Source of the DNA: Sheuella sp.
GTDB lineage: Bacteria > Pseudomonadota > Gammaproteobacteria > Burkholderiales > Burkholderiaceae_B
Length of the DNA: 64,000 bases
NCBI GenBank assembly: GCA_030650995.1
Contig: JAUSCY010000109.1
Location: 1-64,000 of the forward strand
Direction: 5' to 3'
Shown here: one piece after another, positions 8,706 to 50,215 of the stretch
How the letters are laid out: every line of letters starts with the position of its first letter
How positions within the stretch are numbered: position 1 is the stretch's first letter
Notes under the pieces: generated by a model
Told to the model about the DNA's origin: nothing
The model's input: the letters and a program-made list of their open reading frames with translations, nothing else
Database searches by the model: none
Program-made: the position numbers and the translations under genes

Positions 8706-8709
8706 ATAC

Positions 8710-10583: not shown

Positions 10584-10601
10584 AATGACGGTATTAAATC
10601 G

Positions 10602-12592: not shown

Positions 12593-12607
12593 ATAGGACT
12601 TATAAAC

Positions 12608-13789: not shown

Positions 13790-13816
13790 GTGCCAGTCAT
13801 CAAGCTTTGCGTTTTT

Positions 13817-14473: not shown

Positions 14474-14525
14474 GATTAATTTTAAATGAATGCGTAATGA
14501 ATAAGCTGATCTTAATCGGCGTTGC

Positions 14526-33281: not shown

Positions 33282-33854
33282 ATGCAAAACCAAAAACTAT
33301 TAACTTTCGTGCAGGCCATGAGTCGGTTGTTACTGAACGACCCGACCGAAAAAATAATCCTGGCCGAGGGGAGAGGATTGTTGTCGACGCTGGTCGCAGA
33401 AGATGACTGGTTGCCTGAGATGTTTACGCATCCTCATCCGCAGCATTACCAGCAATATCTCCTTTATGCCGATCCGTTAGACAGATTTTCGATGGTGAGC
33501 TTTGTGTGGGGGGCAGGTCAAAAGACCCCTATACACGATCATTTGACCTGGGGACTGATTGGAATGTTGCGCGGCCAGGAAATCGATACGCACTATTTCA
33601 AGCAAACCAATGGTAGCTATCAACCTGGCCAGAGCCATATTCTTGTGCCGGGCGAAGTTTGCTCTGTATCGCCGGCAACACAAGATGTGCACGTTGTTTC
33701 TAATTACTATGCTGATCAATCCTCCATCAGCATCCATGTCTACGGCGGCAATATCGGACGCATTAAGCGTCATGTGTTTGATCCCATGACAGGTGCACCG
33801 AAAGAATTCATCTCTGGATACGGCAACGCTGTCGTCCCGAACCTTTGGAATTGA
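33282..33854 (+). CDS. Thiol dioxygenase, 3-mercaptopropionate dioxygenase type
   Basis: 190 residues of the cysteine dioxygenase cupin family. Iron ligands are His 85 and His 87 in TPIHDHLTWGLIG and His 137 in DVHVVSN. The outer-sphere triad Ser150-His152-Tyr154 is in SISIHVYGG. At the position of the substrate-carboxylate Arg of mammalian enzymes the protein has HYQQYLL, with Gln 57, which is the mark of the 'Gln-type' bacterial enzymes that prefer 3-mercaptopropionate (family knowledge recalled, not searched). It would oxidise the thiol to a sulfinic acid with O2. The next gene encodes a rhodanese protein and starts 17 bases later. Confidence 0.87.
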   Translation: MQNQKLLTFVQAMSRLLLNDPTEKIILAEGRGLLSTLVAEDDWLPEMFTHPHPQHYQQYLLYADPLDRFSMVSFVWGAGQKTPIHDHLTWGLIGMLRGQEIDTHYFKQTNGSYQPGQSHILVPGEVCSVSPATQDVHVVSNYYADQSSISIHVYGGNIGRIKRHVFDPMTGAPKEFISGYGNAVVPNLWN

Positions 33855-33871
33855 AAGGGACATTACAGACC

Positions 33872-35536: not shown

Positions 35537-36415
35537 TTAATCCGGACTAAATCTGGCTCCAATGGCCGCTGCGGCAGATCTTGTTTCAACCCCTAGCTTG
35601 TCAAAGATATGTTCGAGGTGTTTGTTGACCGTTCGAGGACTCATGCCGAGAATTTCTGCGATATCCCGATTCGTTTTACCTTTTGCGACCCAGGATAGGA
35701 CCTCACTCTCGCGCTGTGTGAGCGCTGCTGCCTGAAGTCTCGCAGTGTCTCCATTGCGCAGATTGTTTTGTGCAAGCAAAAGCATGGTTTCACCCAGACC
35801 AACTTGCCCAAGGTTACGGATGGATATATCGCCGTGACCCGGCAGACTGAGTGCAACCTCCGTACTTGAAAGTAAAGTCAAAAAATCAATATCTTTTTCG
35901 TCTTCACCAAGTAATGCGCGGGCCTGAGGGGATTGCCAGGCAACGCGGCCCTGCGAGTCAATTAAAACAACACCAAAACCCGCCACGTCGACAGCCTCTC
36001 TGGCCAGGCGTGCGACACGTGCATTGCGGATATGAGTTTGTAAACGTGCCAGTACTTCTTCGACGCGAACAGGTTTGACAACATAATCCACACCACCACT
36101 ATCAAAAGCATTAACGATATTCTCTGTCTCAGCTAATCCCGTCATGAAAATAACAGGTAGGTGCGCAAGGTTCGGATTGGCTTTTATGCGCTGACAGGTT
36201 TCAAATCCCGATAGTCCAGGCATGACGGCATCGAGCAACACCGCATCGACCAGTACGAGTTCAAGTCTTTCCAGTGCAGACTTTCCATCCAGTGCTACAA
36301 CCACGCTGTAGCCTGCGTTTTCAAGTGACTGATACAAATGACCAAGGCTACTTGGTGTATCGTCAACGAGAAGTATGATGGGTCTAACAGCCGAAGAATT
36401 CATTTTTGTATGCAT
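35537..36415 (-). CDS. LuxR-type response regulator with central PAS-like domain
   Basis: 292 residues. Receiver domain at about 12-130 with the acidic pair DD at 18-19, phosphoacceptor Asp 62 (LLDAVMPGLSG) and conserved Lys in VVKPV. A central segment (about 135-215) contains GFGVVLIDSQGRVAWQSPQARALLG, which looks like a small PAS fold. The C-terminus is a LuxR/FixJ helix-turn-helix (LTQRESEVLSWVAKGKTNRDIAEILGMSPRT in part). It follows the NCS1-type hybrid sensor on the same strand by six bases and must be its output partner. Candidate DNA sites are the GTATAC elements at 39853-39976. Confidence 0.92.
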   Translation of the reverse strand: MHTKMNSSAVRPIILLVDDTPSSLGHLYQSLENAGYSVVVALDGKSALERLELVLVDAVLLDAVMPGLSGFETCQRIKANPNLAHLPVIFMTGLAETENIVNAFDSGGVDYVVKPVRVEEVLARLQTHIRNARVARLAREAVDVAGFGVVLIDSQGRVAWQSPQARALLGEDEKDIDFLTLLSSTEVALSLPGHGDISIRNLGQVGLGETMLLLAQNNLRNGDTARLQAAALTQRESEVLSWVAKGKTNRDIAEILGMSPRTVNKHLEHIFDKLGVETRSAAAAIGARFSPD

Positions 36416-36421
36416 AAATGG

Positions 36422-39400
36422 CTAGACACTTTTATCTTTTGTTAAATCGATGAGTGATTCAAAATCAAAACGCATGACAAGGGTACGCAATTGACTCACT
36501 AATGACTGGTGAGACGGTTCGTGTTTTGCGTGTTCGTCGAGTGTGTCAAGTAGACCTTGAACGTGACCGATATGAATCAATGGCGCAAGCTTTTCCTTTA
36601 GTGAAGATGGGATTTCTTGTTCTATTAAATCTGTCTTTGGTCCGAACATACTGGCAAGCTCGGGAGTATTGAGTCCACAGGCGATCCATTCGATTCCTAA
36701 AAAGCGTCCCAGGACACCTACCAGTTCTGATTCAAGAACAGGTTTGCCGACGAATGCCTGACAATGCGCCGCCTGGATTTTCTCAGGATGATTGTCATAA
36801 AGATTTGCAGAAACCAGAATAATTGGAATGTCGGTAAAGCCAAGTTCACGAATAGCTTTTGCAGTCTGCCAGCCATCCATTTCATCCATGGTCAGATCGA
36901 GCAAAATAGCATCTGGCCTGATATCTTTCAGACTCTCCAGGCACTCACTGCCACTTGCCGCCTCATGCATGATGAATCCGAGGGGGTTGAGTAATGCGGC
37001 CAGCATTTGTCGCTGATCGGGCTGGTCATCGACCGCCAGTAATGTCAGTCTTTTCCCGACATACCCTGATACGGGACCTAAAGCCTTGATGTTATTTCCC
37101 GGGTCAGAAGCTTTAGGCAAATACAGTCGTACGGTAAAAGTTGTGCCTTTCCCGGCGGAGCTCGTCATGGATAAATCTCCTCCCATCATGGAGGTGAGCA
37201 GGCCTGTAATAGTCAGTCCCAACCCTGTTCCGGGCTCTCCGCGTCTGCGTGCAGCACCACCCCGCTCAAACGGTAGGAAAATACGTTGCTGATCTTGCGG
37301 CGCAATACCCACGCCAGTATCTTCAACTTTAAAAACCAGAACTTGCGCACGGGCATCCACACGTAATGTGACAGACCCCTTATCCGTAAATTTAATTGCA
37401 TTGCCTAGCAGGTTGATCAGAACCTGCGTTAATCTTTTAGCATCGCCTTTTACCCAGTCCGGTATATCTCCCTGAACACTATATTCAAATTGCAATCCTC
37501 GTGAGATCGCTTGCGGACGAATCATTCGCACAAGCTCTTCGAGAAGCAAGGGTAATGGGATTGCAGCTGTTTCAAGTCTTAAACGACCAGATTCGATATG
37601 AGCAAGATCGAGCAGATCATCTACAAGCCCTGCCATATGAATCCCGCTGTTTTGAACAGTCTGGAGTGATTCACGCTGTTTTTGATTGAGTTTGTTTTCC
37701 TTCAGAAGAATCTGCAGATATCCTAGAATACTGTTGAGCGGAGTACGTAACTCGTGGGTCATGCCTGCCACATAACGTGTTTTTGCATGGTTCGCACGTT
37801 CAGCTTCGTCCTTTGCTAATTGGAGTGCTGCGTCGGTACGTCGTAATGTTTCTACTTCGCGTTGAAGTAGCCTGCTTTGTGCGTTCGATTCCTCTTGAGC
37901 CAGTTTGCGACTCTCACTGATCAGGACGACCCACCAGCTACACACAGCAATGACTAACATCAGCATGAGATATATTTTGAAAAAAATATTCGTCTGCGTA
38001 TTCAGTGGATTATTTTCGGCAGGATTTTCCTGGGTGAGCGCTATACCCATTACCGTTGCGAGTACGAGAGATAAAGACAGAAATACAAGTAAAAATCGAC
38101 CCGCACGGGATTTGAAACGTTCAGATAGGCGATGAGGCAGAATATGCCTCATCCATCCGGTAACCTGTTCGTCTAGTCTTGAACCGGTTTTACAGGAGTC
38201 ATGGCAGCGCGAATCAAGCGTGCAGCAAAGCGAACAGATTGGTGCGCCGTAGGCAGGACAATATGCCATGTCTGGTGATTCAAAATCATTCTCGCAGATA
38301 CTGCACTGAACAATCTTCCCCGGGTTGGCCGCAGGCGGGGCTCTGCGCGCTACATACCATTTCCCCTGGGTAAACCAGGCAATCGCAGGCGCAGCAATAA
38401 AAGAAGCGACAAGTGCAATGAAGGGAGCAAAGGCTTTGGCTGCTTCTCCAAATAATCCGCTATATGCGAGCAAAGCAAAACCTGCTGCAAATATAGTTGC
38501 ACCGAGTCCAACAGGATTGATGTCGTACAAATAAGCACGCTTAAATTCAATACCTTTTGGAGAAAGTCCCAGAGGTTTGTTCACAACAAGATCGGCTACG
38601 ATCGCTCCGATCCAGGCAATTGCGACATTACTGTACAGTCCAAGTACTTGTTCGAGAGCACGAAAAACACCCAGTGTCATGAGAAGAGTCGCGATCAATA
38701 CATTGAACACCAGCCAGACAACTCGACCTGGATGACTATGCGTGAGTCTGGCGAAAAAGTTTGACCATGCGAGCGAGCCTGCATAGGCATTTGTGACATT
38801 GATCTTGATCTGTGACAGCACGACAAATAATGCAGTAACAGCAATGATCCATAACGGATCGTTAAAGACATATGAAAATCCCGCCGTATACATGCGCGTG
38901 GGCTCACTTGCGAGAACAGGTGTCATTTCTTGCTGAAGTACTAAGAAAGCGAGAAATGCACCACCAAGCATTTTGAACATGCCGGGAAGGATCCAGCCTG
39001 GTCCAGCGATGATGACAGCCGCCCACCATTTAAGACGATTCTTGTCTGTCTTCTCCGGTAAAAACCGTAAGTAATCAACTTGCTCACCTATTTGAACAAC
39101 CAGAGAGCAGGCTACAGTGCATGCAGCGCCAAACATCAGCCAGTTGAAATCACTACTCCCAGAAATACTTCCGCTCAGCCCCATGAAATCTGTAAAAGCC
39201 TGAGGGTCTTTGATTGCAATCGCAATGTATGGGCAAACAAGTAAAACAATCCAAAGTCCTTGTGTCCAGATCTGGAGTTTTGAAATAAGTGTGATTCCAC
39301 GTAACACTAGTGGAATGATGACCAAAGCGCTGATGATGTAACACCAGAGAATTGACCAGTCCAGATAAAGTTTCAAGGCCAGCGCCATGATGGCGGCTTC

Positions 39401-39796
39401 TAACGCAAAGAAAATAAAGGTAAAGGCCGCGTAAATCAAAGAGGTAATGGTGGAGCCGACATAGCCGAAGCCCGCGCCGCGCGTAAGCAAGTCGATATCA
39501 ACACCATAACGGGCGGCATAGTAGCTGATCGGCAATCCGGTGAGGAATGTCACGAGTGCAACAGCAATGATTGCCCACAGTGCGTTAGCAAATCCATAGT
39601 TCAGTGCCATCACTGCGCCAATTGCTTCAAGCGCAAGAAATGAAACACCTCCCAGCGCCGTATTGGCTACACGCCATTCGGACCATTTTCTAAATGAATG
39701 TGGTGTGTAACGCAGTGCATAGTCTTCGAGAGACTCGTCTGCTACCCAGGCATTGTATTCACGCCGGATACGAATGATTTTCTGATTGGCTGACAT
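36422..39796 (-). CDS. Hybrid sensor kinase with NCS1 permease-like input domain
   Basis: 1124 residues from ATG 39796; a GTG lies just before it. Residues about 1-480 form a complete NCS1 (cytosine/uracil/hydantoin permease) domain with about 12 membrane helices (GGVSFLALEAIGAVMALNYG, TRGAGFGYVGSTITSLIYAAF and NKPLGLSPKG region). A compact cluster of eight Cys follows at about 498-535 (CSIC, C, C, CC, C, C), zinc-ribbon-like, then two further helices (about 567-590 and 604-628), a coiled linker, HisKA with His about 681 (THELRTPLNS), HATPase with NAIKF, DTGVGI and GTGLGLTI, and a receiver with Asp about 967 (LLDLTMDEMDG). It probably senses an amide, urea, hydantoin or nucleobase directly or during transport. 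Response regulator follows. Confidence 0.93.
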   Translation of the reverse strand: MSANQKIIRIRREYNAWVADESLEDYALRYTPHSFRKWSEWRVANTALGGVSFLALEAIGAVMALNYGFANALWAIIAVALVTFLTGLPISYYAARYGVDIDLLTRGAGFGYVGSTITSLIYAAFTFIFFALEAAIMALALKLYLDWSILWCYIISALVIIPLVLRGITLISKLQIWTQGLWIVLLVCPYIAIAIKDPQAFTDFMGLSGSISGSSDFNWLMFGAACTVACSLVVQIGEQVDYLRFLPEKTDKNRLKWWAAVIIAGPGWILPGMFKMLGGAFLAFLVLQQEMTPVLASEPTRMYTAGFSYVFNDPLWIIAVTALFVVLSQIKINVTNAYAGSLAWSNFFARLTHSHPGRVVWLVFNVLIATLLMTLGVFRALEQVLGLYSNVAIAWIGAIVADLVVNKPLGLSPKGIEFKRAYLYDINPVGLGATIFAAGFALLAYSGLFGEAAKAFAPFIALVASFIAAPAIAWFTQGKWYVARRAPPAANPGKIVQCSICENDFESPDMAYCPAYGAPICSLCCTLDSRCHDSCKTGSRLDEQVTGWMRHILPHRLSERFKSRAGRFLLVFLSLSLVLATVMGIALTQENPAENNPLNTQTNIFFKIYLMLMLVIAVCSWWVVLISESRKLAQEESNAQSRLLQREVETLRRTDAALQLAKDEAERANHAKTRYVAGMTHELRTPLNSILGYLQILLKENKLNQKQRESLQTVQNSGIHMAGLVDDLLDLAHIESGRLRLETAAIPLPLLLEELVRMIRPQAISRGLQFEYSVQGDIPDWVKGDAKRLTQVLINLLGNAIKFTDKGSVTLRVDARAQVLVFKVEDTGVGIAPQDQQRIFLPFERGGAARRRGEPGTGLGLTITGLLTSMMGGDLSMTSSAGKGTTFTVRLYLPKASDPGNNIKALGPVSGYVGKRLTLLAVDDQPDQRQMLAALLNPLGFIMHEAASGSECLESLKDIRPDAILLDLTMDEMDGWQTAKAIRELGFTDIPIILVSANLYDNHPEKIQAAHCQAFVGKPVLESELVGVLGRFLGIEWIACGLNTPELASMFGPKTDLIEQEIPSSLKEKLAPLIHIGHVQGLLDTLDEHAKHEPSHQSLVSQLRTLVMRFDFESLIDLTKDKSV

Positions 39797-39852
39797 CACT
39801 AGAGTCTTTTGATCTCTGGTTAGTCCAGATCGCTTGTGAACAATCTGGCTCG

Positions 39853-39862
39853 GCGTATACGC
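39853..39862. promoter_or_regulatory. GTATAC site 1
   Basis: GCGTATACGC, a perfect 10-bp palindrome followed by AAAGAG. First of three GTATAC-centred elements in the divergent region; nearest to the sensor gene. Confidence 0.45.
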
Positions 39863-39908
39863 AAAGAGTAATCGAATTTTTTTTCACAGAAAATATTGTG
39901 TGCAGGAC

Positions 39909-39916
39909 TGTATACA
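39909..39916. promoter_or_regulatory. GTATAC site 2
   Basis: TGTATACA, a perfect 8-bp palindrome followed by AAAG, with its centre 55 bases from site 1. Confidence 0.4.
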
Positions 39917-39947
39917 AAAGTCTAAATCAAGGGAACTGAAGATGCGC

Positions 39948-39965
39948 ATACGTCAATTGACGTAT
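39948..39965. promoter_or_regulatory. 18-bp perfect palindrome upstream of the amide ABC operon
   Basis: ATACGTCAATTGACGTAT (39948-39965) is fully self-complementary. Its flanks carry the same ACGTAT/ATACGT half-sequence that resembles the arms of the GTATACGC sites. Strong candidate for a dimeric regulator's operator, most simply the LuxR-type regulator encoded at 35537-36415. Confidence 0.55.
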
Positions 39966-39967
39966 TG

Positions 39968-39976
39968 GGTATACGC
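39968..39976. promoter_or_regulatory. GTATAC site 3
   Basis: GGTATACGC followed by AATA, with its GTATAC centre about 59 bases from site 2 and just downstream of the 18-bp palindrome. It repeats the GTATACGCAA of site 1 exactly over ten bases. Confidence 0.4.
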
Positions 39977-40039
39977 AATAAACGACGCAGAATGACTTCA
40001 CAGAGAGTTCATCGGTCGTTAACCCCAGGAGCACACATT

Positions 40040-41296
40040 ATGAAGAAGCCCGAGTTCGAGTTTGAACCCCGTGCCGATCGTCGGCAAGTATTGCAGGGTC
40101 TCGTTGGTTTAGCATTGGCTGCAGCCACCATGCGCGCAGGTGCGCAGAAATTGCCAACTTCACAAGTCAACACCACTAAATTGGCTGTGACGGATACAGA
40201 AGTTACCGTTGGTCAGTTGCATTCAGCAACAGGCACGATGGCGATTTCTGAAACTGGTTCGATTCAGGCTGAACAGCTTGCGATTGACCAGATCAATGCA
40301 ATGGGTGGCGTGTTAGGTCGTCAGATCAAGGTGATCAAGGAGGACGGCGCCTCGGATTGGCCAACTTTTGCTGAAAAAGCAAAAAAATTGCTGGTCAGCG
40401 ATCATGTCGCAACAGTTTTTGGTTGCTGGACATCGGCTTCGCGTAAAGCAGTATTACCAATTTTCGAAAAAGAAAATGGAATGCTGTACTACCCAACCTT
40501 CTACGAAGGTCTGGAGCAGAGCAAGAACGTCATTTACACCGGACAGGAAGCGACTCAGCAGATTCTGTGGGGTCTGGATTGGGCAGCCAAAGAAAAAGGT
40601 ACCAAGTCATACTTCCTCGTGGGTTCAGACTACATCTGGCCACGTACTTCGATGAAGATTGCACGCAAACACATCGAAGGTGTACTGAAGCAGAAAGTTG
40701 TAGGCGAAGAATATTATCCACTGGGCAACACCAACTTTAACTCGTTGATCAACAAGATCAAAGCAGCAAAGCCTGACCTGATTTATGCAGCGGTTGTGGG
40801 TGGCAGTAACGTCGCTTTTTATAAACAGCTCAAAGCAGCTGGCATCACATCGGCCAAACAAAAATTATTGACTATCTCTGTCACAGAAGACGAACTGCTC
40901 GGAATCGGTGGCGAGAACACAGCAGGTTTCTATTCCTGCATGAAGTATTTCCAGTCTCTGGATAACGAAAACAACAAGAAATTTGTTGCAGCGTTCAAAG
41001 GGAAATATGGTCCTAACTCAGTAATTGGCGATGTGACCCAGGCCGCTTATCTAGGTCCCTGGCTCTGGAAATTTACAGTTGAAAAAGCAGGCAGCTTTGA
41101 TGTTGACAAGATTGCAGCGGCTTCGGCTGGTATTGAGTTTAAAGGCGCGCCTGAAGGCTACGTCAAGATTGATGAAAACCATCACCTCTGGAGTAAGGCA
41201 CGCATTGGTGAAATGTTGCCAAACGGCCAGTTCAAGGTTGTTGCTGAATCCCCAGAACTGATCAAACCCGATCCGTTCCCTAAGGGCTATCAGTAA
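40040..41296 (+). CDS. Periplasmic binding protein of urea/short-chain amide ABC transporter
   Basis: 418 residues from ATG 40040 (AGGAG eight bases upstream; the frame from 39965 has no such support). A twin-arginine-like export signal DRRQVLQGLVGLALAAA precedes a cleavage near RAGAQK. The mature protein is of the UrtA/FmdD type: TVGQLHSATGTMAISETGS, FGCWTSASRKAVLPIFE, GLEQSKNVIYTGQEATQQI and GDVTQAAYLGPWLW. It binds urea or amides such as acetamide or formamide; the neighbouring formamidase and amidase favour amides. First gene of a long operon. Confidence 0.92.
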   Translation: MKKPEFEFEPRADRRQVLQGLVGLALAAATMRAGAQKLPTSQVNTTKLAVTDTEVTVGQLHSATGTMAISETGSIQAEQLAIDQINAMGGVLGRQIKVIKEDGASDWPTFAEKAKKLLVSDHVATVFGCWTSASRKAVLPIFEKENGMLYYPTFYEGLEQSKNVIYTGQEATQQILWGLDWAAKEKGTKSYFLVGSDYIWPRTSMKIARKHIEGVLKQKVVGEEYYPLGNTNFNSLINKIKAAKPDLIYAAVVGGSNVAFYKQLKAAGITSAKQKLLTISVTEDELLGIGGENTAGFYSCMKYFQSLDNENNKKFVAAFKGKYGPNSVIGDVTQAAYLGPWLWKFTVEKAGSFDVDKIAAASAGIEFKGAPEGYVKIDENHHLWSKARIGEMLPNGQFKVVAESPELIKPDPFPKGYQ

Positions 41297-41332
41297 GCAG
41301 TTAATGGTTAACGTTTGAGTCAAGGAGTCGTG

Positions 41333-42247
41333 ATGGAACTGTCTGAAGTGCTCAATATTGCCCTGATGCAGGGTTTTGCGGGTCTGAGCCTGTTTGCTGT
41401 GCTGCTCCTGATGGGGCTCGGACTGGCAATCATTTTCGGTCAGATGGGTGTAATCAACATGGCTCATGGTGAGTTTATGGCGATTGGTGCCTATACCGTC
41501 TACCTTGGCTCAACGTTAACCGAAAAGTATGCACCGGGCTTTATGCCGGCTTACTTTCCATTTGCAATCATCGCGGCCTTCATATTCGCATTTATTGGAG
41601 GTTGGATTGCGGAGTGGGCGCTTATCCGTCATTTGTATAAGCGCCCACTGGATACCCTGCTGGCAACCTGGGGACTAAGCCTTGGGCTCCAGCAGGTTTT
41701 TCGTACCTTTATTAGTCCTAAAGAAGTCAGCCCGACTTTGCCTGACTGGTTGATGGGTTCCTGGGCTCCGCAAGAGGGCCTCGATATTCCAATTAACGGA
41801 ATGTTCGTGATGGGGTTGACCTTACTGGTGACTGCTGGCGTCATGCTTGCCTTATATAAGAGTCGTTGGGGTTTGCGTGTCCGTGCAACTGTTAGCAATC
41901 GTCCAATGGCGAATGCTACGGGTATCAATACAAAGAAAACAGATCAATTAACGTTTGCTATCGGTTGTGGGATTGCCGGTATAGCAGGTGCTGCTTTTAC
42001 AACGATCGGCTCGACCGGGCCGACTTCGGGTTCGCTCTACATCGTTGATGCGTTTCTCGTCGTCACCTTTGGCGGTGCTGCAAGTTTATTAGGAACCGCA
42101 TTTTCAGCGTTCCTGATTGCTCAGACTCAATCTATTAGCGAATTTTTCATGACTGGCTCGATGGCCAAGGTCTTTACGCTTTCTGTCATCGTCATCGTTC
42201 TGATGATTCGTCCTCAGGGCTTATTTGCCTCGAAGATCCGACGCTAA
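41333..42247 (+). CDS. urtB: Amide/urea ABC transporter permease, UrtB type
   Basis: 304 residues from ATG 41333 (AAGGAG five bases upstream). LivH-like permease with GLAIIFGQMGVINMAHGEFMAIGAY at the first helices and VDAFLVVTFGGAASLLGTAFSAFLIA at the end. It forms the inner-membrane channel with the next gene. The name urtB reflects its family; in Methylophilus the equivalent is fmdE. Operon position directly after the binding protein. Confidence 0.9.
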   Translation: MELSEVLNIALMQGFAGLSLFAVLLLMGLGLAIIFGQMGVINMAHGEFMAIGAYTVYLGSTLTEKYAPGFMPAYFPFAIIAAFIFAFIGGWIAEWALIRHLYKRPLDTLLATWGLSLGLQQVFRTFISPKEVSPTLPDWLMGSWAPQEGLDIPINGMFVMGLTLLVTAGVMLALYKSRWGLRVRATVSNRPMANATGINTKKTDQLTFAIGCGIAGIAGAAFTTIGSTGPTSGSLYIVDAFLVVTFGGAASLLGTAFSAFLIAQTQSISEFFMTGSMAKVFTLSVIVIVLMIRPQGLFASKIRR

Positions 42248-42277
42248 TCATCAACTCGTTTATCGGAGCCGACTCTC

Positions 42278-43510
42278 ATGCAATCCATCAAGAATTTGCT
42301 CAAACAACCTGGCGTGTTGAGTATCGCCATACTCGCCGTGATTTTATTAGTGGTCTTTCCGGCACTTCTCGATAACTTTCGACTCAATCTGGTCGGTAAG
42401 TATCTGACATACGCCTTTGTTGCGATAGGACTTGTAGTGCTGTGGGGCTGGGGCGGTATTTTAAGTCTCGGGCAAGGTGTGTTCTTTGGCCTGGGTGGTT
42501 ACTGCATGGCTATGTTCCTTAAGCTCGAGGCTTCTGATCCTATCAGCACCAAGATTCAGTCGACTCCTGGAATTCCCGATTTTATGGATTGGAACCAGAT
42601 TACAGAACTACCAATCTGGTGGCTCCCGTTCAAAAGTTTGACCCTTTCATTGATCGCGGTCATTGCTGTTCCCTCGTTTCTGGCATTCATCGTCAGTTAT
42701 GCAATGTTTAAACGTCGCGTAGGTGGTGTGTATTTCGCAATTATTACGCAAGCTGTTGCCCTGATCATGACAACACTGATTATTGGCTTGCAAGGATATA
42801 CGGGCGGTGTGAATGGTATGACTGACCTCAAGACGATGAATGGTTGGGATACTCGTACGGACGAAGCGAAAATAATTCTGTATTACGCTTGTTGCCTGAC
42901 TTTATTGCTATGTGTAATTATCGGCACATACATTCAGCGCACCAAGTTTGGAACTTTATTGCTGGCGATGCGGGATAAAGAGGATCGTGTGCGTTTCTCT
43001 GGTTATGACGTATCGATGTTCAAGGTGGCTGCATTCTGTCTGGCTGCTGGCGTTTCAGGAATTGGTGGCGCGTTTTTCGCCTTGCAAGTTGGTTTCATGT
43101 CGCCATCGTTTGTCGGCATCGTACCGTCGATCGAACTCGTCATTCTATGCGCCGTCGGCGGTCGACTCAGCCTGGTGGGCGCAGTCTATGGTGCCTTGTT
43201 GGTCAATGCGAGCAAAACACTTTTCTCGGAAAGTTTCCCTGATCTGTGGCTGTTTTTGATGGCCGCACTATTTATCGGGGTCACTATGGCCTTCCCCTAT
43301 GGTTTGGCAGGCTTGTTTGAATCTCATGTCAAACCCTGGTGGACGCGTAAATCGACAGAGCGTCGCATGATCAAACAACGTTTAATTGAATTGGAAAATG
43401 AGGCGGACCGAGAGGCTGCACATGCAGCAGAGGTCGATTCTGCCTCCGCAATTGCAGTGCAGTCTACAACCGACGCAGCTGAATTAGTCATCAGAAGGAG
43501 TGCGCCATGA
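42278..43510 (+). CDS. urtC: Amide/urea ABC transporter permease, UrtC type
   Basis: 410 residues, LivM-like, with LVVLWGWGGILSLGQGVFFGLGGY and GYTGGVNGMTDL, typical of UrtC, and PSFVGIVPSIELVILCAVGGRLSLVGAVYGA near the C-terminal end (only partly quoted as VPSIELVILCAVGG). A cytoplasmic Glu/Ala-rich tail of about 60 residues extends beyond the last helix. Its stop overlaps the ATG of the first ATPase by four bases. Confidence 0.9.
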   Translation: MQSIKNLLKQPGVLSIAILAVILLVVFPALLDNFRLNLVGKYLTYAFVAIGLVVLWGWGGILSLGQGVFFGLGGYCMAMFLKLEASDPISTKIQSTPGIPDFMDWNQITELPIWWLPFKSLTLSLIAVIAVPSFLAFIVSYAMFKRRVGGVYFAIITQAVALIMTTLIIGLQGYTGGVNGMTDLKTMNGWDTRTDEAKIILYYACCLTLLLCVIIGTYIQRTKFGTLLLAMRDKEDRVRFSGYDVSMFKVAAFCLAAGVSGIGGAFFALQVGFMSPSFVGIVPSIELVILCAVGGRLSLVGAVYGALLVNASKTLFSESFPDLWLFLMAALFIGVTMAFPYGLAGLFESHVKPWWTRKSTERRMIKQRLIELENEADREAAHAAEVDSASAIAVQSTTDAAELVIRRSAP

Positions 43511-44253
43511 GTAGCAGCACCGACTTTGTATTGGCAATTGAGGATCTGACGGTATCTTTTGATGGCTTCAAAGCGATTGATAGCCTGAATCTGTATGTCG
43601 ACAAAAATGAATTGCGAGTCATCATCGGGCCCAATGGTGCCGGTAAGACAACCCTGCTTGACATGATATGCGGCAAGACCCGTGCTACCGCAGGCAGTAT
43701 CAAATTCAAGAATGAGGAGATGACAGTTTTGCCAGAGTACGCTCGCGTGCGCAAGGGCATTGGCCGGAAATTTCAAACGCCTTCCATTTATGAAAACCTC
43801 TCTGTATTCCAGAATCTGGAGGTCTCGTATCCAAAAGGTCGGTCAGTGTTTGGTGCTGTTGTATTCAGGTGCGACGACGAGGTTAAGTCCAAAGTCGATT
43901 CTGTCGCACGTGAAATCGGTCTCATCGATACCCTGAAGACTGAAGCAGGATTGCTTTCGCATGGTCAGAAGCAATGGCTTGAAATCGGGATGTTGTTGAT
44001 GCAGGAGCCTGAGTTGTTGATGCTTGATGAACCGATCGCAGGGATGAGTGTGCGAGAACGCGAGTTAACTGCAGAGTTACTTAAACGTATCTCGAATAAT
44101 CGTTCAGTCATTGTGATTGAGCACGATATGGAATTTGTGAAGAAGATTGCTCACAAGGTGACGGTGATGCACCAGGGCAAGATTCTGGCGGAAGGTTCGA
44201 TGGATAAGGTCCAGAACGACCCTGTCGTAATCGAAGTTTATCTCGGACACTAG
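43507..44253 (+). CDS. urtD: Amide/urea ABC transporter ATPase, UrtD type
   Basis: 248 residues. Walker A GPNGAGKTT, signature LSHGQKQWLEIGMLL (the SHGQ form is typical of UrtD rather than SGGQ), Walker B LLMLDEPIAGM and H-loop VIEHD. LivG-like. It starts by ATGA overlap with the UrtC-type gene and ends 11 bases before the UrtE-type gene. Confidence 0.92.
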   Translation: MSSSTDFVLAIEDLTVSFDGFKAIDSLNLYVDKNELRVIIGPNGAGKTTLLDMICGKTRATAGSIKFKNEEMTVLPEYARVRKGIGRKFQTPSIYENLSVFQNLEVSYPKGRSVFGAVVFRCDDEVKSKVDSVAREIGLIDTLKTEAGLLSHGQKQWLEIGMLLMQEPELLMLDEPIAGMSVRERELTAELLKRISNNRSVIVIEHDMEFVKKIAHKVTVMHQGKILAEGSMDKVQNDPVVIEVYLGH

Positions 44254-44263
44254 GAGACCTGAC

Positions 44264-44953
44264 ATGCTGAGCGTAAAAGATCTCTACGTTGCTTACGGAC
44301 AAAGTGAAGCCCTGCACGGTATTAATCTTGAGGCAGGTAAGCAGGAAACTGTTGCCATCATGGGTCGCAACGGTATGGGTAAGACAACATTTTTTAAAAG
44401 CCTGATAGGTTTATTACCAACAAAAAGCGGTTCGATTACGGTTGACGGACAGGATGTGACGCGAGATGAAAGCTATCGTCGCGTAGCAAAGGGGATCGCC
44501 TATGTACCCCAGGGAAGAATGATTTTCCCAACACTGACTGTTGAGGAAAATATTCAGACGGGTCTTGAAAATGATAAAGACAAGGTTATCCCGGATGAAA
44601 TTTATGCGTTGTTTCCAGTTCTCTGGGACATGCGTCGGCGCAAGGGTGGAAACCTTTCCGGTGGACAACAGCAGCAACTTGCCATTTCGCGCGCACTGGT
44701 GACTAACCCGAAGGTCTTATTGCTTGATGAGCCTACCGAAGGCATTCAGCCGTCGATCATTAAAGATATAGCAAAGGCACTCAATGAGATTCGCCGCATG
44801 CGTGGCATCACCATCATCGTATCCGAGCAAGTGTTGAGTTTCGCACTGGATGTCGCAGATCGACTCTTTGTGATTGAAGGTGGCCGTCTGGTCTATGAGA
44901 CGGCTCGCGAGGATACGGATATAGATCGAATTAAGCATTATTTGTCTGTGTAA
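44264..44953 (+). CDS. urtE: Amide/urea ABC transporter ATPase, UrtE type
   Basis: 229 residues, LivF-like. Walker A GRNGMGKTT, signature LSGGQQQQLAISRAL, Walker B VLLLDEPTEGIQPS (the EGIQPS continuation is characteristic) and a terminal region with ISYLSV-like ending HYLSV. It completes the transporter. Formamidase follows after 66 bases. Confidence 0.92.
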   Translation: MLSVKDLYVAYGQSEALHGINLEAGKQETVAIMGRNGMGKTTFFKSLIGLLPTKSGSITVDGQDVTRDESYRRVAKGIAYVPQGRMIFPTLTVEENIQTGLENDKDKVIPDEIYALFPVLWDMRRRKGGNLSGGQQQQLAISRALVTNPKVLLLDEPTEGIQPSIIKDIAKALNEIRRMRGITIIVSEQVLSFALDVADRLFVIEGGRLVYETAREDTDIDRIKHYLSV

Positions 44954-45019
44954 AGAAGTTCGCAATTTCATTGCTACTGATGATTCCAAACCCCGTTCAT
45001 ATATTTAAAGAGGTGCGCT

Positions 45020-46249
45020 ATGCCTGAAACACTCATCACCGTTGACCTGAAAGCTTCACCTTATGACAACCCAAAGATTCATAATCGCTGGCATCCAGAC
45101 ATACCGATGGCTTGCTGGGTTAAACCTGGTGACGATTTCATTCTTGAAACCTTCGACTGGACAGGTGGTTTCATCAAGAACAATGACAGCGCGGATGATG
45201 TCCGTGATATCGACTTGTCGACGGTGCATTTCCTGTCTGGCCCAGTTGGCGTGAAAGGTGCCGAACCCGGTGATTTGTTAGTTGTTGATCTGTTGGATAT
45301 CGGTGCAAAAGACGATAGTCTCTGGGGTTTCAACGGATTTTTCAGTAAACAAAATGGTGGAGGATTTCTGACGGATCATTTCCCCAATGCACAAAAATCA
45401 ATTTGGGATTTTCACGGCATGTTTACCACAAGCCGTCACATTCCTAATGTGAAATTTGCTGGTTTGATTCATCCAGGATTAATTGGTTGTCTGCCAGACC
45501 AGAAAATGCTCGATATGTGGAATGAGCGCGAAATTGATTTCATCGCAACTGATCCCGATCGTGTGCCTCCTCTCGCTAACCCGCCTTTTGCGAAAACAGC
45601 CCATGCTGGACAGGCAACAGGTGATGTCAAAACAAAAATCGCTGCAGAAGGCGCACGTACTGTCCCTCCTCGTGAGCATGGTGGTAACTGCGACATTAAA
45701 GATTTGTCACGCGGCTCGAAAATTTACTTCCCTGTCTATGTCGACGGCGCCGGTTTGTCAGTGGGTGATTTGCACTTCAGTCAGGGCGATGGCGAGATTA
45801 CATTCTGCGGCGCAATTGAGATGGCCGGCTGGGTACACATGAAGGTTGAGCTGATTAAAGGTGGAATGGCGAAGTACGGCATCAAAAATCCTGTATTCAA
45901 ACCAAGCCCCATCACCCCTCATTACAACGACTACCTGATTTTTGAAGGTATTTCAGTAGACGAGCAGGGTAAACAGCATTATCTGGATGTGAACGTGGCC
46001 TATCGCCAGGCTTGTCTGAACGCGATCGAGTATATGACTAAGTTTGGTTATTCACGCGCACAGGCCTATTCGATCCTAGGCACTGCACCTGTGCAAGGCC
46101 ATATCAGTGGCGTTGTTGATATCCCGAATGCTTGTGCCACGCTTTGGCTACCCACACAGATTTTCGATTTTGATATCAATCCAAACGCTAGTGGCCCAAC
46201 TAAGTTAGTGACACCCGGCATGGATATGCCATTGTCTTTGGATCTTTAA
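45020..46249 (+). CDS. fmdA: Formamidase (acetamidase/formamidase family)
   Basis: 409 residues, full length for the family. Recognisable segments are WHPDIPMACWVKPGDDF, TFDWTGGFIKNNDS, DVRDIDLSTVHFLSGPV near the start, LSRGSKIYFPVYVDGAGLSVGD and HFSQGDGE in the catalytic core, and GYSRAQAYSILGTAPVQG. It hydrolyses formamide to formate and ammonia in the cytoplasm. Formate could feed formate-THF ligase at 55161-56834. An AGAGG-type ribosome binding site lies before the ATG. Confidence 0.95.
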   Translation: MPETLITVDLKASPYDNPKIHNRWHPDIPMACWVKPGDDFILETFDWTGGFIKNNDSADDVRDIDLSTVHFLSGPVGVKGAEPGDLLVVDLLDIGAKDDSLWGFNGFFSKQNGGGFLTDHFPNAQKSIWDFHGMFTTSRHIPNVKFAGLIHPGLIGCLPDQKMLDMWNEREIDFIATDPDRVPPLANPPFAKTAHAGQATGDVKTKIAAEGARTVPPREHGGNCDIKDLSRGSKIYFPVYVDGAGLSVGDLHFSQGDGEITFCGAIEMAGWVHMKVELIKGGMAKYGIKNPVFKPSPITPHYNDYLIFEGISVDEQGKQHYLDVNVAYRQACLNAIEYMTKFGYSRAQAYSILGTAPVQGHISGVVDIPNACATLWLPTQIFDFDINPNASGPTKLVTPGMDMPLSLDL

Positions 46250-46278
46250 TTCAATCATGTTTTTTTGAGGAGCCCCAC

Positions 46279-46638
46279 ATGCCTACCTATGACTATGACT
46301 GTAAGTCCTGCGGTCCATTTGACGCTTTGCGTCAGATGAGTAAGCGAGATGAATCGTTAGCGTGTCCGGCTTGTGGGGCACTCAGTGCACGGTTCTTTGC
46401 TTTTGGCTCAAATCTTTCGCGAGTCGATAGCGATACCCGGCGCGCGATTGAAGGTAATGAGCGTGCGGCTCACGTCCCAAAGATGTCAAAGGATTACGAC
46501 TCGACATATGCGCGACTCAAACATCCCTCAGGTTGCGGCTGCTGTTCTAGTGCGAGTGGTAAACGAAGTGCTACACAGACTTTCGCAAACGGTAATAAAA
46601 CATTTGTTGGTAAACGCCCCTGGATGATTAGTCATTGA
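46279..46638 (+). CDS. fmdB: FmdB-type zinc-ribbon protein
   Basis: 119 residues. The N-terminal FmdB domain has CKSCG ... CPACG as a four-Cys zinc ribbon with PTYDYDC at the start. A second Cys group (GCGCCSSASG) lies at about residues 84-92. FmdB of Methylophilus is reported as a regulator needed for amide/urea-induced gene expression, and small FmdB-like proteins are otherwise of unknown function. Position directly after fmdA is the same as in that organism. Confidence 0.9.
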   Translation: MPTYDYDCKSCGPFDALRQMSKRDESLACPACGALSARFFAFGSNLSRVDSDTRRAIEGNERAAHVPKMSKDYDSTYARLKHPSGCGCCSSASGKRSATQTFANGNKTFVGKRPWMISH

Positions 46639-46712
46639 TTCCAGTCTGAGACATTCGTGAAAAATAACTGTATTCAGATGCGTAGTTAGAGCAGTCAAGC
46701 CGGAGAGTAAAA

Positions 46713-47750
46713 ATGAGACATGGTGATATTTCAAGCAGTAATGATTGTGTTGGCGTTGCAGTTGTGAATTACAAGATGCCGCGATTGCATACTAAAGCCG
46801 AGGTGTTGGATAACGCTCGAAAAATTGGTGAAATGCTGATCGGTATGAAACAAGGATTGCCAGGCATGGATCTGGTGATTTTTCCGGAATACAGCACGCA
46901 TGGCATTATGTATGACGCCCGCGAAATGTACGAGACGGCCTCGACTATTCCTGGCGATGAAACTGAAATTTTTTCAGCTGCTTGTCGTCAAGCGAACGTA
47001 TGGGGTGTTTTCTCATTAACAGGCGAACGTCACGAAGAACACCCTAATAAGGCACCTTACAACACTCTGATATTAATGAATAATAAAGGAGAGATCGTAC
47101 AGAAATACCGCAAAATCATGCCTTGGACACCCATCGAAGGTTGGTACCCTGGCGATTGCACCTATGTGTCTGACGGACCGAAGGGCATGAAAATAAGTCT
47201 CATCATTTGTGATGATGGTAATTACCCTGAAATCTGGCGTGATTGTGCAATGCGTGGTGCAGAGCTGATTGTTCGCTGCCAGGGTTATATGTATCCCGCG
47301 AAAGAACAGCAAGTGATGGTTGCCAAGTGTATGGCATGGATGAATAACACCTATGTGGCTGTGGCGAATGCAGCAGGATTTGATGGCGTGTACTCGTATT
47401 TCGGTCATTCCGCGATTGTTGGTTTTGATGGTCGTACCCTTGGAGAGTGCGGCGAAGAAGAAATGGGTATTAATTACGCTGAACTCTCTGTAAGTTTAAT
47501 TCGCGATTTTCGCAAAAACGCTCAGTCACAAAATCATTTATTCAAACTTGTTCATCGTGGCTATACCGGTAAGATCAATTCGGGTGAAGAGGTCAATGGT
47601 TTAGCGGCTTGTCCATATGAGTTTTATGGAAAATGGTTGAGTGATCCAGAGGGGACGCGCAAAATGGTTGAGTCGTTTACGCGCTCGACGGTTGGTACTC
47701 CTGAATGTCCGATCGAAGGTATTCCACACGAACTGCCGCAGCATAAGTAA
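46713..47750 (+). CDS. amiE: Aliphatic amidase AmiE
   Basis: 345 residues, essentially the length of Pseudomonas AmiE. Nitrilase-superfamily triad: Glu in VIFPEYS, Lys in KYRKIMPW and Cys in [11 protein letters not shown]. The start [11 protein letters not shown] and [14 protein letters not shown] match AmiE closely. It hydrolyses acetamide, propionamide and related short amides to the acid and ammonia. GGAG before the ATG. AmiE is followed by a MoxR-type ATPase in Pseudomonas as well (AmiB), which makes the adjacent AAA+ gene meaningful. Confidence 0.95.
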
Positions 47751-47753
47751 TGT

Positions 47754-48557
47754 ATGGATGAGCTGGAGCAGTATCGAATTTCGAACGAACCTTTTTACTC
47801 TCCTTCTGGTAATGAGGTAGAGCGCTACAAACAGGCTTATGCGCACCGTATTCCTTTATTACTTAAAGGACCGACTGGCTGCGGCAAGACTAGATTTATC
47901 GAGCACATGGCCTATGTGCTCGATAAGCCATTGGTCACTGTGGCGTGTAATGAAGATATGAGTGCCTCAGACCTGATTGGTCGGTTTCTTCTCGATCCTC
48001 AGGGGACCTTTTGGCATGATGGTCCGCTTACGCAAGCCGTCAGGTACGGTGGAATCTGCTATCTGGATGAAATCGTTGAGGCCAGACAAGATACGACTGT
48101 TGTGATTCATCCGTTGACGGATTCACGCAGGATACTGCCGCTTGATAAAAAGGGTGAATTGCTCAATGCGCATCCTGATTTCCAGCTTGTTGTTTCTTAT
48201 AACCCTGGATATCAGAGTCATTCCAAGGATATGAAGGCTTCTACGCGACAGAGATTTGCAGCGATGGAGTTTGATTATCCAGTAGCTTCAGTTGAAGCTG
48301 GAATTTTGGTGCATGAGACGGGTATTTCAACTGACCTCGCTGATGTGCTTGTCTCGATTGCTCAGCAAACGAGACAATTAAAAAATCAAGGCTTAGTGGA
48401 GGGCGCATCAACTCGCATGCTCATTTATGCGGCTAGAATGATTCTGGACGGTATGTCACCACGTGATAGTTGTGCAATGACTATTGTCAGCGCATTAAGC
48501 GATGAGATCGATTTAAATGAAAGTTTGTGTGCCTTGGTTGATGCGCATTTTGCATGA
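47754..48557 (+). CDS. MoxR/CbbQ/NorQ-type AAA+ ATPase
   Basis: 267 residues. Walker A GPTGCGKTRF (Lys about 45), Walker B YLDEIVE, and the sensor and CbbQ C-terminal parts (QGLVEGASTRMLIYAARMI). CbbQ/NorQ ATPases work with a VWA partner to remodel or activate a target complex. It begins three bases after the amiE stop and overlaps the VWA gene by ATGA, so the three form one translational block. Confidence 0.92.
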   Translation: MDELEQYRISNEPFYSPSGNEVERYKQAYAHRIPLLLKGPTGCGKTRFIEHMAYVLDKPLVTVACNEDMSASDLIGRFLLDPQGTFWHDGPLTQAVRYGGICYLDEIVEARQDTTVVIHPLTDSRRILPLDKKGELLNAHPDFQLVVSYNPGYQSHSKDMKASTRQRFAAMEFDYPVASVEAGILVHETGISTDLADVLVSIAQQTRQLKNQGLVEGASTRMLIYAARMILDGMSPRDSCAMTIVSALSDEIDLNESLCALVDAHFA

Positions 48558-50215
48558 TGCAAACTGAATCAGGATACAGCCGTTCTCTTTCCTTTTTGTT
48601 GCACGGTCTTTCTGAGTCTGATATCCCTGTTCATTTTATGACCAGTGGTGAGAGCGCAAATCAGAACACTAGTTTGAGATCCGTCATCAGCCTGCAAAAT
48701 ATTTTGCTTCCCCAGTCTTTGATAAATATCGAAACAGGAGGGCTCAGTAGATTGGAGCGTGCGCGTGTTGCGCATGCGGCAGCGCATCTTTTATACAGCG
48801 TTCCTGCTCGTGATGTATCCAGACTGAAGCCGATGGGCATTGCAGTTGTCTCTGCGATAGAAGATGCGCGTGTCGAGCACTTGCTGATGAAACGTTTTCC
48901 TGGAGTAAGGCGCTGGTTTTGTGAGGCTATGCAGGCACAGAGTATCGAGCATGATGCTTTTTCTTCCTTGATTGCCAAACTTGCACATGGATTATTCAAT
49001 GCTAATGCTCATAGCGAGGAATATTGGGTCAATAAGGCAAGAGAGCTATTTTTTTCGCTAATAACTAAAAATGGACCTGAAGACTATGAAGGATATCGTG
49101 CAATTGCTGCGATTCTTGCAAATGATCTCGGACAAATGCGTATTCAGTTTAATGCGCAGGCATATATAAATCCTGTCGTGTATCGGGATGACAATTCATA
49201 TTTATGGAATTTCGATACGCAAAAATCAGAACCAGAATTATCAATTGGCTTTTCACCGTCAGTGTTAAAGCCCGTCCCTCTTACTGAGAGCTCACAGGGT
49301 GATCGACAGGATGTGCTGTTAAATATTGAGGCATTTCATTATCCTGAGTGGGACTATCGCTCGGACATTGAACGTAAGGATTGGTGTACGGTAATCGAAT
49401 ACAGAGATGCACCGTCTGTGGCAGACTCTGGCTCGAATATCTCTCGATACTCAACACAGAATTTTTTACGACTTTCAAAAAATAATGCCAGAGCGCTGAG
49501 TCGCGATAAATTATTTCGCCAGCAGGAGGGTGATGCCCTGGATATGAATGCGGTTATCGATAGTGTTGCGTTAGCCAGGCAAATGGGGGATAGCGATCAG
49601 CGTCATTACATACGCCCCAGTTTACGTAAAAAAAATATAAGTTTGCTTTTAGTGCTTGATCTCTCTGCATCTGTTGGGGCTTGGGTTGGGGACGCATGCC
49701 AATCAATTCTTGATCTCGAAAAGACTGCTGCGATGATGCTTGCCGATATTGCACATCAGCAGGGAGATCGCATTGCAATACATGGATTTTGTTCTGACAC
49801 ACGAAAGGGTATTCATTACTACCGGTTCCTGGATTTTGATCAACCATTTACCCGCTCAGGATTACACGCACTAAAAACTGCTGGGCATCAATATTCGACA
49901 AGAATGGGGGCGGCACTTCGACACAGCATAAGTTTTTTCAAGCAGTGTGATGCTGATACTCAAGCAATCATTATGATGACGGATGGCGCTCCAGCCGATA
50001 TTGATGTTTTTGATCCAGCCTACCTTGCGCAGGATGCACGCAAAGTAGTCATTGAGTCGATTAAAAAGGGGATCGATATCTACGGGCTGGTGTTGAGCCC
50101 TGACTCGGTCGACCAAACAAAAAAAATATTTGGTTCATCCCGCCACCGTATCGTGTCCAGAGTTCAGTCGTTATCGATACAACTTGAAAGTTTATATCTG
50201 CAAATTAAATCTTAG
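48554..50215 (+). CDS. VWA-domain protein, NorD/CbbO-like
   Basis: 553 residues. The C-terminal VWA domain begins at about 362 and has an intact MIDAS motif, LDLSAS (Asp 369, Ser 371, Ser 373), then later MMTDGAP. The N-terminal region with AHAAAHLL and IEDARVE is as in NorD/CobT-type MoxR partners. It pairs with the AAA+ ATPase. The likely client is in this locus: AmiE, FmdA or the NCS1 sensor (inference). It is the last gene of the block and is convergent with the nucleosidase. Confidence 0.9.
   Translation: MMQTESGYSRSLSFLLHGLSESDIPVHFMTSGESANQNTSLRSVISLQNILLPQSLINIETGGLSRLERARVAHAAAHLLYSVPARDVSRLKPMGIAVVSAIEDARVEHLLMKRFPGVRRWFCEAMQAQSIEHDAFSSLIAKLAHGLFNANAHSEEYWVNKARELFFSLITKNGPEDYEGYRAIAAILANDLGQMRIQFNAQAYINPVVYRDDNSYLWNFDTQKSEPELSIGFSPSVLKPVPLTESSQGDRQDVLLNIEAFHYPEWDYRSDIERKDWCTVIEYRDAPSVADSGSNISRYSTQNFLRLSKNNARALSRDKLFRQQEGDALDMNAVIDSVALARQMGDSDQRHYIRPSLRKKNISLLLVLDLSASVGAWVGDACQSILDLEKTAAMMLADIAHQQGDRIAIHGFCSDTRKGIHYYRFLDFDQPFTRSGLHALKTAGHQYSTRMGAALRHSISFFKQCDADTQAIIMMTDGAPADIDVFDPAYLAQDARKVVIESIKKGIDIYGLVLSPDSVDQTKKIFGSSRHRIVSRVQSLSIQLESLYLQIKS

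What the first reader, a model, noticed from the sequence alone, without database searches (positions are those of the whole stretch)
35537..50215. Self-contained amide/urea sensing, import and hydrolysis locus driven by an NCS1-permease histidine kinase
Divergent arms: a hybrid kinase whose input is a whole NCS1 permease-like domain plus a LuxR-type regulator on one side, and on the other UrtABCDE-type importer, FmdA, FmdB, AmiE, MoxR ATPase and VWA protein. The parts are each known; the combination of a transporter-like sensor, two different amide hydrolases and a MoxR-VWA pair under an apparently shared control region is the most system-like thing here. Formate and ammonia would be the products.
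Basis: partly seen in the sequence, partly recalled or inferred. Interest (0 to 1): 0.85.

Follow-up and report, generated by a model that had tools for sequence, protein, structure and literature searches.

The report
Transporter-like sensor beside formamidase operon
The locus is real: a sensor kinase whose sensing part resembles a membrane transporter sits back to back with an operon that very probably imports and breaks down formamide and similar small amides, and the same pairing recurs elsewhere, including on many Klebsiella plasmids.

Summary
All named genes are present. The kinase input is an NCS1-related membrane domain plus an eight-cysteine module, found in all 38 sensor-bearing sources examined. 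In 151 family genomes, 17 of 19 with the sensor carry formamidase fmdA within 6 kb. A palindrome, TACGTC-N4-GACGTA, lies between the arms, the only perfect copy in the assembly. It recurs, with up to 2 mismatches, upstream of 16 of 17 kinases that face a urt operon, not in 20 control loci away from a sensor, and stands 23 bp before a -10-like box in 23 of 32 sites. UrtA from amidase loci forms its own clade, the window included; urease lies elsewhere in this genome. Around other copies FmdA is replaced by unrelated AmiF, and the importer by AmiS or a free-standing permease. AmiE and the MoxR-VWA pair are an optional add-on. Signal, transport and DNA binding are inferred, not tested.

The parts
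35537..36415 (-). Response regulator: REC + LuxR/GerE DNA-binding domain; recognition helix SPRTVNKHLEHIF
   Evidence: Pfam Response_reg 86 bits, GerE 68.6 bits; helix compared with relatives
36422..39799 (-). Hybrid histidine kinase: NCS1-related multi-pass domain (aa 1 to about 485), eight-Cys module (aa 499-536), two further hydrophobic segments (565-591, 601-631), HisKA with HELRTPL at 682, HATPase_c, REC
38192..38305 (-). Eight-Cys module C-x2-C-x11-C-x7-CSLCC-x5-C-x3-C (aa 499-536)
   Evidence: exact spacing in 38 of 41 sources examined; no confident family or fold match
39949..39964 (.). Palindrome TACGTCAATTGACGTA, proposed regulator binding site
   Evidence: only perfect copy in the assembly, reversed control 0; in relatives; not in control loci
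39965..39993 (+). Proposed promoter: 23-bp spacer then -10-like CAGAAT (39988-39993)
   Evidence: -10-like hexamer at the same offset in 23 of 32 related sites, 0 to 2 of 32 at each other offset from 10 to 35
40040..41296 (+). UrtA-like substrate-binding protein, amide clade (ORF as listed opens at 39965)
   Evidence: TIGR03407 517.5 bits, cut-off 492.75; tree; start codon
41315..42247 (+). UrtB-like permease
   Evidence: TIGR03409
42278..43510 (+). UrtC-like permease
   Evidence: TIGR03408
43507..44253 (+). UrtD-like ATPase
   Evidence: TIGR03411
44264..44953 (+). UrtE-like ATPase
   Evidence: TIGR03410
45020..46249 (+). FmdA formamidase
   Evidence: NF045496 773.6 bits, cut-off 500; 823 bits to formamidase structure 2wkn
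46279..46638 (+). FmdB-type zinc-ribbon protein (RPWMISH)
   Evidence: NF053663, TIGR02605
46713..47750 (+). AmiE aliphatic amidase
   Evidence: NF009802 715 bits, cut-off 427; 655 bits to 2plq
47754..48557 (+). MoxR-type AAA+ ATPase of the CbbQ/NirQ/NorQ class
   Evidence: AAA_5 and CbbQ_C
48554..50215 (+). VWA-domain protein, likely partner of the ATPase
   Evidence: VWA 26.2 bits, cut-off 23.8

Best explanation
This is an inducible scavenging system for formamide and other short amides. Proposed steps: (1) the NCS1-related domain binds formamide or a close isostere such as urea (inferred); (2) the change passes through the eight-Cys module and the last two membrane segments to the kinase, which phosphorylates the adjacent LuxR-type regulator (inferred from domains); (3) the regulator binds TACGTC-N4-GACGTA just upstream of the urtA promoter and activates urtABCDE-fmdAB-amiE-cbbQ-vwa (conservation of the site, its rarity, its spacing from a -10 box and its absence from sensor-free loci are shown; binding and activation are inferred); (4) the UrtA-type importer brings in amide, FmdA splits formamide to formate and ammonia, AmiE handles short aliphatic amides (from family assignment).
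For: Linkage: in a class sample of 369 genomes the sensor is in 17, fmdA in 20, both in 6, and in those 6 they lie within 10 kb (co-presence p 1e-4); in a family sample of 151, 17 of 19 sensor genomes have fmdA within 6 kb (p 3e-12). Changing parts around a steady chemistry: FmdA or unrelated AmiF; UrtABCDE, AmiS/UreI or a stand-alone permease. Palindrome: one perfect copy in the assembly; 9 perfect copies in the 17 sensor genomes, 8 of them beside the kinase or fmdA or, in G197, 1.4 kb before urtA (with 57, 58, 62, 84); at 2 mismatches or fewer upstream of 16 of 17 kinases facing a urt operon and of 17 of 17 fmdA-linked family sensors; in none of 20 control loci. A detached fmdA in G171 has its own copy. 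23-bp spacing to a -10-like box in 23 of 32. UrtA clade split 23 versus 10 rows, support 100/100.
Against: No ligand, phosphotransfer or DNA-binding data. Formamide-linked and urease-linked sensors do not form separate clades (the fmd label needs 6 changes, against 11.2 for shuffled labels), so the sensor's own preference is not resolved. 11 of 17 class genomes with the sensor lack FmdA. Seven loci have the input domain with no amide or urea gene that I recognised in the stretch held (L007, L033, L039, L041, L043, L044, L046). The operator is not universal: L040 has urt-fmdA beside the kinase without it, and so do the alphaproteobacterial fmdA-linked sensors L049 and L053. 14 of 20 fmdA genomes in the class sample do without the sensor. 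Structure prediction of the membrane domain failed (mean pLDDT 45.6). Sites compared are related, not independent.
Confidence: 0.72

Rival explanations
1. One reading: one locus for sensing, importing and hydrolysing urea as well as amides.
For: Importer genes carry urea family names; some sensor relatives sit near urea-type urt and urease (L038, L042, L045, L105); a sensor-like stand-alone permease precedes urease genes.
Against: No urease here; ureC and another urtA on other contigs; window UrtA in the clade from amidase loci.
Confidence: 0.12
2. The kinase responds to nitrogen status or to a product (ammonia, formate) and the permease-like part is only a membrane anchor.
For: Methylophilus fmdCABDEF is repressed by ammonia (PMC10781810, passages).
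Against: The membrane domain plus Cys module is 53 to 63% identical between loci whose hybrid-kinase halves are 33 to 43%, which fits a specific ligand rather than an anchor; stand-alone relatives sit in fmdA and urease loci.
Confidence: 0.15
3. The eight-Cys module is the true sensor (metal or redox), the permease part a carrier of that signal.
For: Exact cysteine spacing in all 38 sensor-bearing sources examined; weak RING/PHD-like matches.
Against: Fold matches are below significance; a metal or redox signal does not explain the linkage to formamidase and urease.
Confidence: 0.08
4. A variant compatible with the best explanation: the membrane domain is also a working amide transporter, so the protein senses flux (true transceptor) rather than occupancy.
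For: Stand-alone close relatives occur in fmdA loci that lack a complete urt importer (L032, L049); CbrA is reported to have transport and kinase activities (PMC7096432, title and start of abstract in the list).
Against: Not testable here; Ks-Amt5 binds but does not translocate its ligand (PMC5764959, section heading in the outline).
Confidence: 0.35

Closest known systems
SLC5/STAC histidine kinases (CbrA, CrbS, RpuS)
   Same: Whole transporter fold as input of a histidine kinase, with a small coupling domain between (PMC13022988 passages; PMC9100948 abstract start in the list)
   Different: No SLC5 or STAC match here; NCS1-related membrane domain, eight-Cys module, amide operons
Ks-Amt5 ammonium sensor kinase
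   Same: Nitrogen-compound transporter recruited as sensor (PMC5764959 abstract and outline)
   Different: Amt domain and ammonium as ligand
Methylophilus methylotrophus fmdCABDEF
   Same: Formamidase with binding-protein-dependent amide/urea importer, induced by formamide and urea (PMC10781810 passages)
   Different: No transporter-type kinase in the passages I read
amiE-fmdA-fmdB-urtABCDE clusters of Pseudomonas veronii and Bradyrhizobium japonicum
   Same: Same kinds of importer and hydrolases; both papers argue that the importer takes amides (PMC13209695, PMC3098086 passages)
   Different: Kinase and operator not mentioned in the passages I read
Klebsiella plasmid 'UTS' urea transport system (UrtABC/AmiF)
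   Same: Same importer clade, same type of kinase-regulator pair, one-mismatch palindrome
   Different: Described as a urea importer (PMC5506382, PMC13060141 passages); AmiF in place of FmdA
NCS1 permeases (PF02133)
   Same: 28% identity over 506 aa to a PF02133-positive permease
   Different: No direct PF02133 match; fused Cys module and kinase

Membership tests
NCS1 permeases | Match to PF02133 | tested here: not met
   No match in the whole genome at E 0.001, the whole kinase at E 0.001, or aa 1-516 at E 10
NCS1 permeases | Long-range homology to an accepted NCS1 member | tested here: met
   E 2e-36 over 506 aa to the L054 permease, which matches PF02133 with 39.2 bits
NCS1 permeases | LeuT-type fold | tested here: inconclusive
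   AlphaFold2 mean pLDDT 45.6; profile search of solved structures found no transporter
SLC5/STAC transceptor kinases | SLC5 domain and STAC domain | tested here: not met
   Pfam scan of the kinase shows only HisKA, HATPase_c, Response_reg
Two-component system | HisKA + HATPase_c kinase with adjacent REC-output regulator | tested here: met
   HELRTPL at 682
FmdA formamidase | NF045496 over cut-off | tested here: met
   773.6 versus 500 bits
FmdA formamidase | Activity on formamide | not testable with these tools
   needs an enzyme assay
Urea ABC transporter UrtABCDE | TIGR03407 and partner models over cut-off | tested here: met
Urea ABC transporter UrtABCDE | UrtA groups with UrtA of urease loci | tested here: not met
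   Groups with the 22 other rows from amidase loci, apart from 10 rows without an amidase (6 of them with ureC in the stretch), 100/100
MoxR-VWA pair (CbbQO/NorQD) | CbbQ_C ATPase followed by VWA protein | tested here: met
MoxR-VWA pair (CbbQO/NorQD) | Acts on the neighbouring enzyme | not tested
   only gene linkage to amiE

The most novel reading that the evidence does not exclude
The NCS1-related domain plus eight-Cys module is a portable small-amide (formamide/urea) sensing unit that proteobacteria have plugged into hybrid kinases, simple kinases, a PAS-PAS kinase and a PAS-GGDEF-EAL protein, and that also exists free-standing; one version drives a formamide regulon on hundreds of enterobacterial, mostly Klebsiella, plasmids whose importer is currently described as a urea transporter.
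Probability: 0.6. Interest if true: 0.72.

Novelty: new variant of a known kind. Interest (0 to 1): 0.62.

Why it matters
Transporter-kinase fusions are few and mechanistically unresolved; this adds a widespread one with a likely ligand, a proposed operator and natural rewiring to other outputs, so that ligand, coupling module and output can each be tested. It also makes a concrete prediction: the UrtABCDE-AmiF cluster on Klebsiella plasmids, suggested in print to be a urea importer that may help in the urinary tract, is more likely an amide-scavenging regulon.

Tried and rejected
Structure prediction of kinase residues 1-690 from 8 sequences was too poor to use (mean pLDDT 45.6) and was not searched. 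The Cys-module model (mean pLDDT 65.3) gave mostly RING/PHD/FYVE-type matches, the best with E 0.53, and its profile one sequence match under E 0.01, a short stretch of a human zinc-finger protein: a zinc-finger-like fold is possible, not shown. Profile search of the membrane domain against solved structures gave no transporter. A sigma-54 promoter was considered by eye in the output and dropped; no tool was run for it. The sensor tree did not separate formamide from urea contexts. The second perfect palindrome in G138 lies inside a cytochrome oxidase subunit II gene and is counted as unrelated. MoxR-VWA as part of the sensor system was rejected for lack of linkage.

Counting notes. Matches with 2 mismatches are weak singly: about one per 64 kb is expected by chance, and 4 to 5 of 300 shuffles of the L038 and L036 upstream stretches do as well. 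For the family sensor count I kept 19 genomes with E below 1e-200 and left out 3 weak ones (G403, G422, G459). Of the 20 control loci, 19 come from genomes without the sensor (13 of the 14 class genomes with fmdA and no sensor, G217 not fetched, plus 3 with amiE only) and one (L064) from G052, whose sensor is on another contig. The 32 sites leave out L023, L052, L057 and L085. In the UrtA tree 4 of the 10 urea-side rows (L036, L052, L063, L106) have neither amidase nor ureC in the stretch held and were labelled by their urt type; one row (L078) with a stop was dropped. The share of urease genomes in the class as a whole was not measured, so the 15 of 17 sensor genomes with ureC have no baseline.
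Full report
What is there. Searches confirm the gene list. The minus arm holds a 1125-aa hybrid kinase (36422-39799) and, 6 bases on, a REC-LuxR regulator (35537-36415). The plus arm holds urtABCDE, fmdA, fmdB, amiE, a CbbQ/NorQ-class ATPase and a VWA protein, close-packed from about 40040 to 50215. FmdA and AmiE match the solved formamidase 2wkn and aliphatic amidase 2plq along nearly their whole length.

The sensor. Pfam recognises only the kinase parts and PF02133 is silent, yet residues 22-515 align with a plasmid cytosine permease at 28% identity, E 2e-36, and that permease matches PF02133. A stand-alone permease annotated as allantoin permease, upstream of urease genes in Acinetobacter ursingii, is 43% identical. 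Behind the membrane domain comes C-x2-C-x11-C-x7-CSLCC-x5-C-x3-C. One search looked at 41 sources (window and 40 loci): 38, all those with a sensor, hold it with exact spacing, 41 copies in all, fmdA-linked stand-alone permeases included; the 3 without are the two urease-linked permeases (L051 keeps a truncated remnant) and the NCS1 permease. Two further hydrophobic stretches (565-591, 601-631) lead to HisKA. Membrane domain plus module is 53-63% identical to the window in the loci, the hybrid-kinase half 33-43%: the input is what selection holds most fixed. The same input is joined to PAS-GGDEF-EAL (L044), to PAS-PAS-HisKA-REC (L046), to kinases without REC (L043, L053), or stands alone (L032, L049).

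What it goes with. A class-wide sample of 369 genomes has the sensor in 17 and FmdA in 20; six have both, and in all six they lie within 10 kb (Fisher 1e-4 for co-presence). A family sample of 151 has strong sensors in 19 and FmdA over the cut-off in 31; 17 have both, with fmdA 0.3 to 5.6 kb from the sensor domain (Fisher 3e-12). The two others (G499, G402) have the kinase near urea-type urt genes, with ureC at the edge of the stretch in G499. Parts are swapped while the chemistry stays: AmiF, a nitrilase-type formamidase, replaces FmdA on a Klebsiella plasmid; AmiS/UreI stands in for the ABC importer in Paracoccus and G455; a free-standing permease with the Cys module accompanies fmdA in G263 and in Methylovirgula, where only a short urtA-like piece was seen. 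ureC lies 1 to 17 kb from the sensor in G107, G048, G009 and G070 and 2 kb from the stand-alone form in G279. Formamide and urea are isosteric (general knowledge), so a common ligand type is a fair inference. Against it: the sensor tree interleaves the two contexts, and seven loci with the input domain have no amide or urea gene that I recognised in the stretch held (L007, L033, L039, L041, L043, L044, L046), some of those stretches being short on one side.

Urea or amide. 33 UrtA rows fall into two groups with 100/100 support: 23 from loci with an amidase, 10 from loci without; of the 10, six have ureC in the stretch and four have neither. Some amidase loci also have ureC further along (L065, L068, L077). 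The window is in the amidase group. TIGR03407 accepts members of both, so the name urea transporter is not informative. The window's genome keeps a higher-scoring urtA on contig 59 and ureC on contig 106. The Klebsiella plasmid UrtA is in the amidase group.

The operator. The intergenic region holds TACGTCAATTGACGTA at 39949-39964, the only perfect TACGTC-N4-GACGTA in the 3.13-Mb assembly, with no hit for the reversed control pattern. In 500 bp upstream of 31 kinase-type genes it occurs with at most 2 mismatches in 18: in 16 of the 17 that face a urt operon (L040 fails; in L038 and L042 urtA is 1.4 kb off) and in 2 of the 14 others (L032, L023). The fmdA-linked alphaproteobacterial sensors L049 and L053 lack it. 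In Sinorhizobium L052 a one-mismatch copy sits before urtA instead. In the 17 sensor genomes there are 9 perfect copies; 7 lie beside the kinase or fmdA, one (G197) 1.4 kb before urtA with one ORF between, one inside an unrelated gene; the control pattern has 3. In G171 a second copy precedes a detached fmdA. In 20 loci with urtA, fmdA or amiE away from a sensor the best matches have 3 or more mismatches. The other 15 fmdA-linked family sensors, besides the window and G394, carry it with 0 to 2 mismatches; G499 and G402 do not. The regulator's recognition helix reads RTVNKHLE in most rows; the N is E, K or D in L040, L045 and L049, which lack the palindrome, and T in L052, whose copy is degenerate and displaced; but L007, L033, L037b, L039 and L041 keep the N without a palindrome upstream of the kinase, so this is suggestive only. 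A -10-like hexamer (4 of 6 or better) begins exactly 23 bp after the palindrome in 23 of 32 sites, against 0-2 of 32 at each other offset from 10 to 35; the 23 are the window, its near relatives, three Burkholderia-group plasmids and the family genomes, and the 9 misses are the more distant loci. That puts the palindrome about 44 bp upstream of the expected start, overlapping the -35 position, the usual place for an activator that touches polymerase (placement rule recalled).

Add-ons. L005 and L006 have the sensor, urt and fmdA but no amiE, ATPase or VWA in the stretch held. Of 19 amiE loci, a VWA gene follows amiE in 12 (window, L001, L003, L032, L055, L065-L071), in 5 of them with CbbQ between; the 7 without are L048, L049, L057, L073 (VWA further off), L075, L076, L077. 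MoxR-VWA pairs remodel or load enzymes (NorQD; PMC9976466 and PMC13036017, abstract starts in the list); a maturation role for AmiE is a guess.

Prior art. Five searches of the held library listed no NCS1-type histidine kinase by title or abstract start; most subscription papers are not in it. The Sinorhizobium relative appears by gene order to be SMb20609/SMb20610, called functionally uncharacterised in 2025 (PMC12542648 passages; the strain differs and the mapping is mine). Klebsiella papers describe UrtABC/AmiF as a urea system; a word search of PMC13060141 found no 'histidine kinase' or 'two-component', and of PMC5506382 no 'two-component'. Of 72,556 plasmid records, 375 match the Klebsiella locus (352 of them Klebsiella), 341 over 80% or more of it; the best place has at least 99% identity in 372 of the 375. 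PMC5506382 reports it on resistance plasmids (passages).

Verdict. New, as far as these searches go, is the sensor type with its module, proposed operator and spread; the importer and amidases are known parts.

Noticed in passing
L050 (Klebsiella oxytoca plasmid CP026716.1), 5909-16264: Same type of kinase-regulator pair with urtABCDE-amiF on a plasmid that also carries clpK/hsp20; 341 plasmid records hold 80% or more of the locus. Its UrtA is in the amide clade, which questions the published urea-importer reading.
   Followed up: partly
window 46713-50215; L065-L071: A VWA gene follows amiE in 12 of 19 amiE loci, with or without CbbQ: a possible dedicated chaperone for aliphatic amidase.
   Followed up: partly
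L044 (G137:C3) 6849-16915: The same membrane-plus-Cys input fused to PAS-GGDEF-EAL, divergent and about 1.4 kb from a Rubisco-CbbQ-VWA cluster.
   Followed up: no
G000:C96:29542-30654: A second, weaker FmdA-family match (255.7 bits, under the cut-off) with one in-frame stop.
   Followed up: no
window 39853-39976: GTATAC occurs three times around the palindrome in the intergenic region; meaning unknown.
   Followed up: no
window 33282-35527: A cysteine-dioxygenase-like protein (just under Pfam's cut-off) followed by a protein with four rhodanese stretches; also near the kinase in L002 and L005.
   Followed up: no
L107 (G379) 6907-10307: The kinase gene is split into two overlapping open frames (622 and 733 aa); error or natural split not settled.
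   Followed up: no
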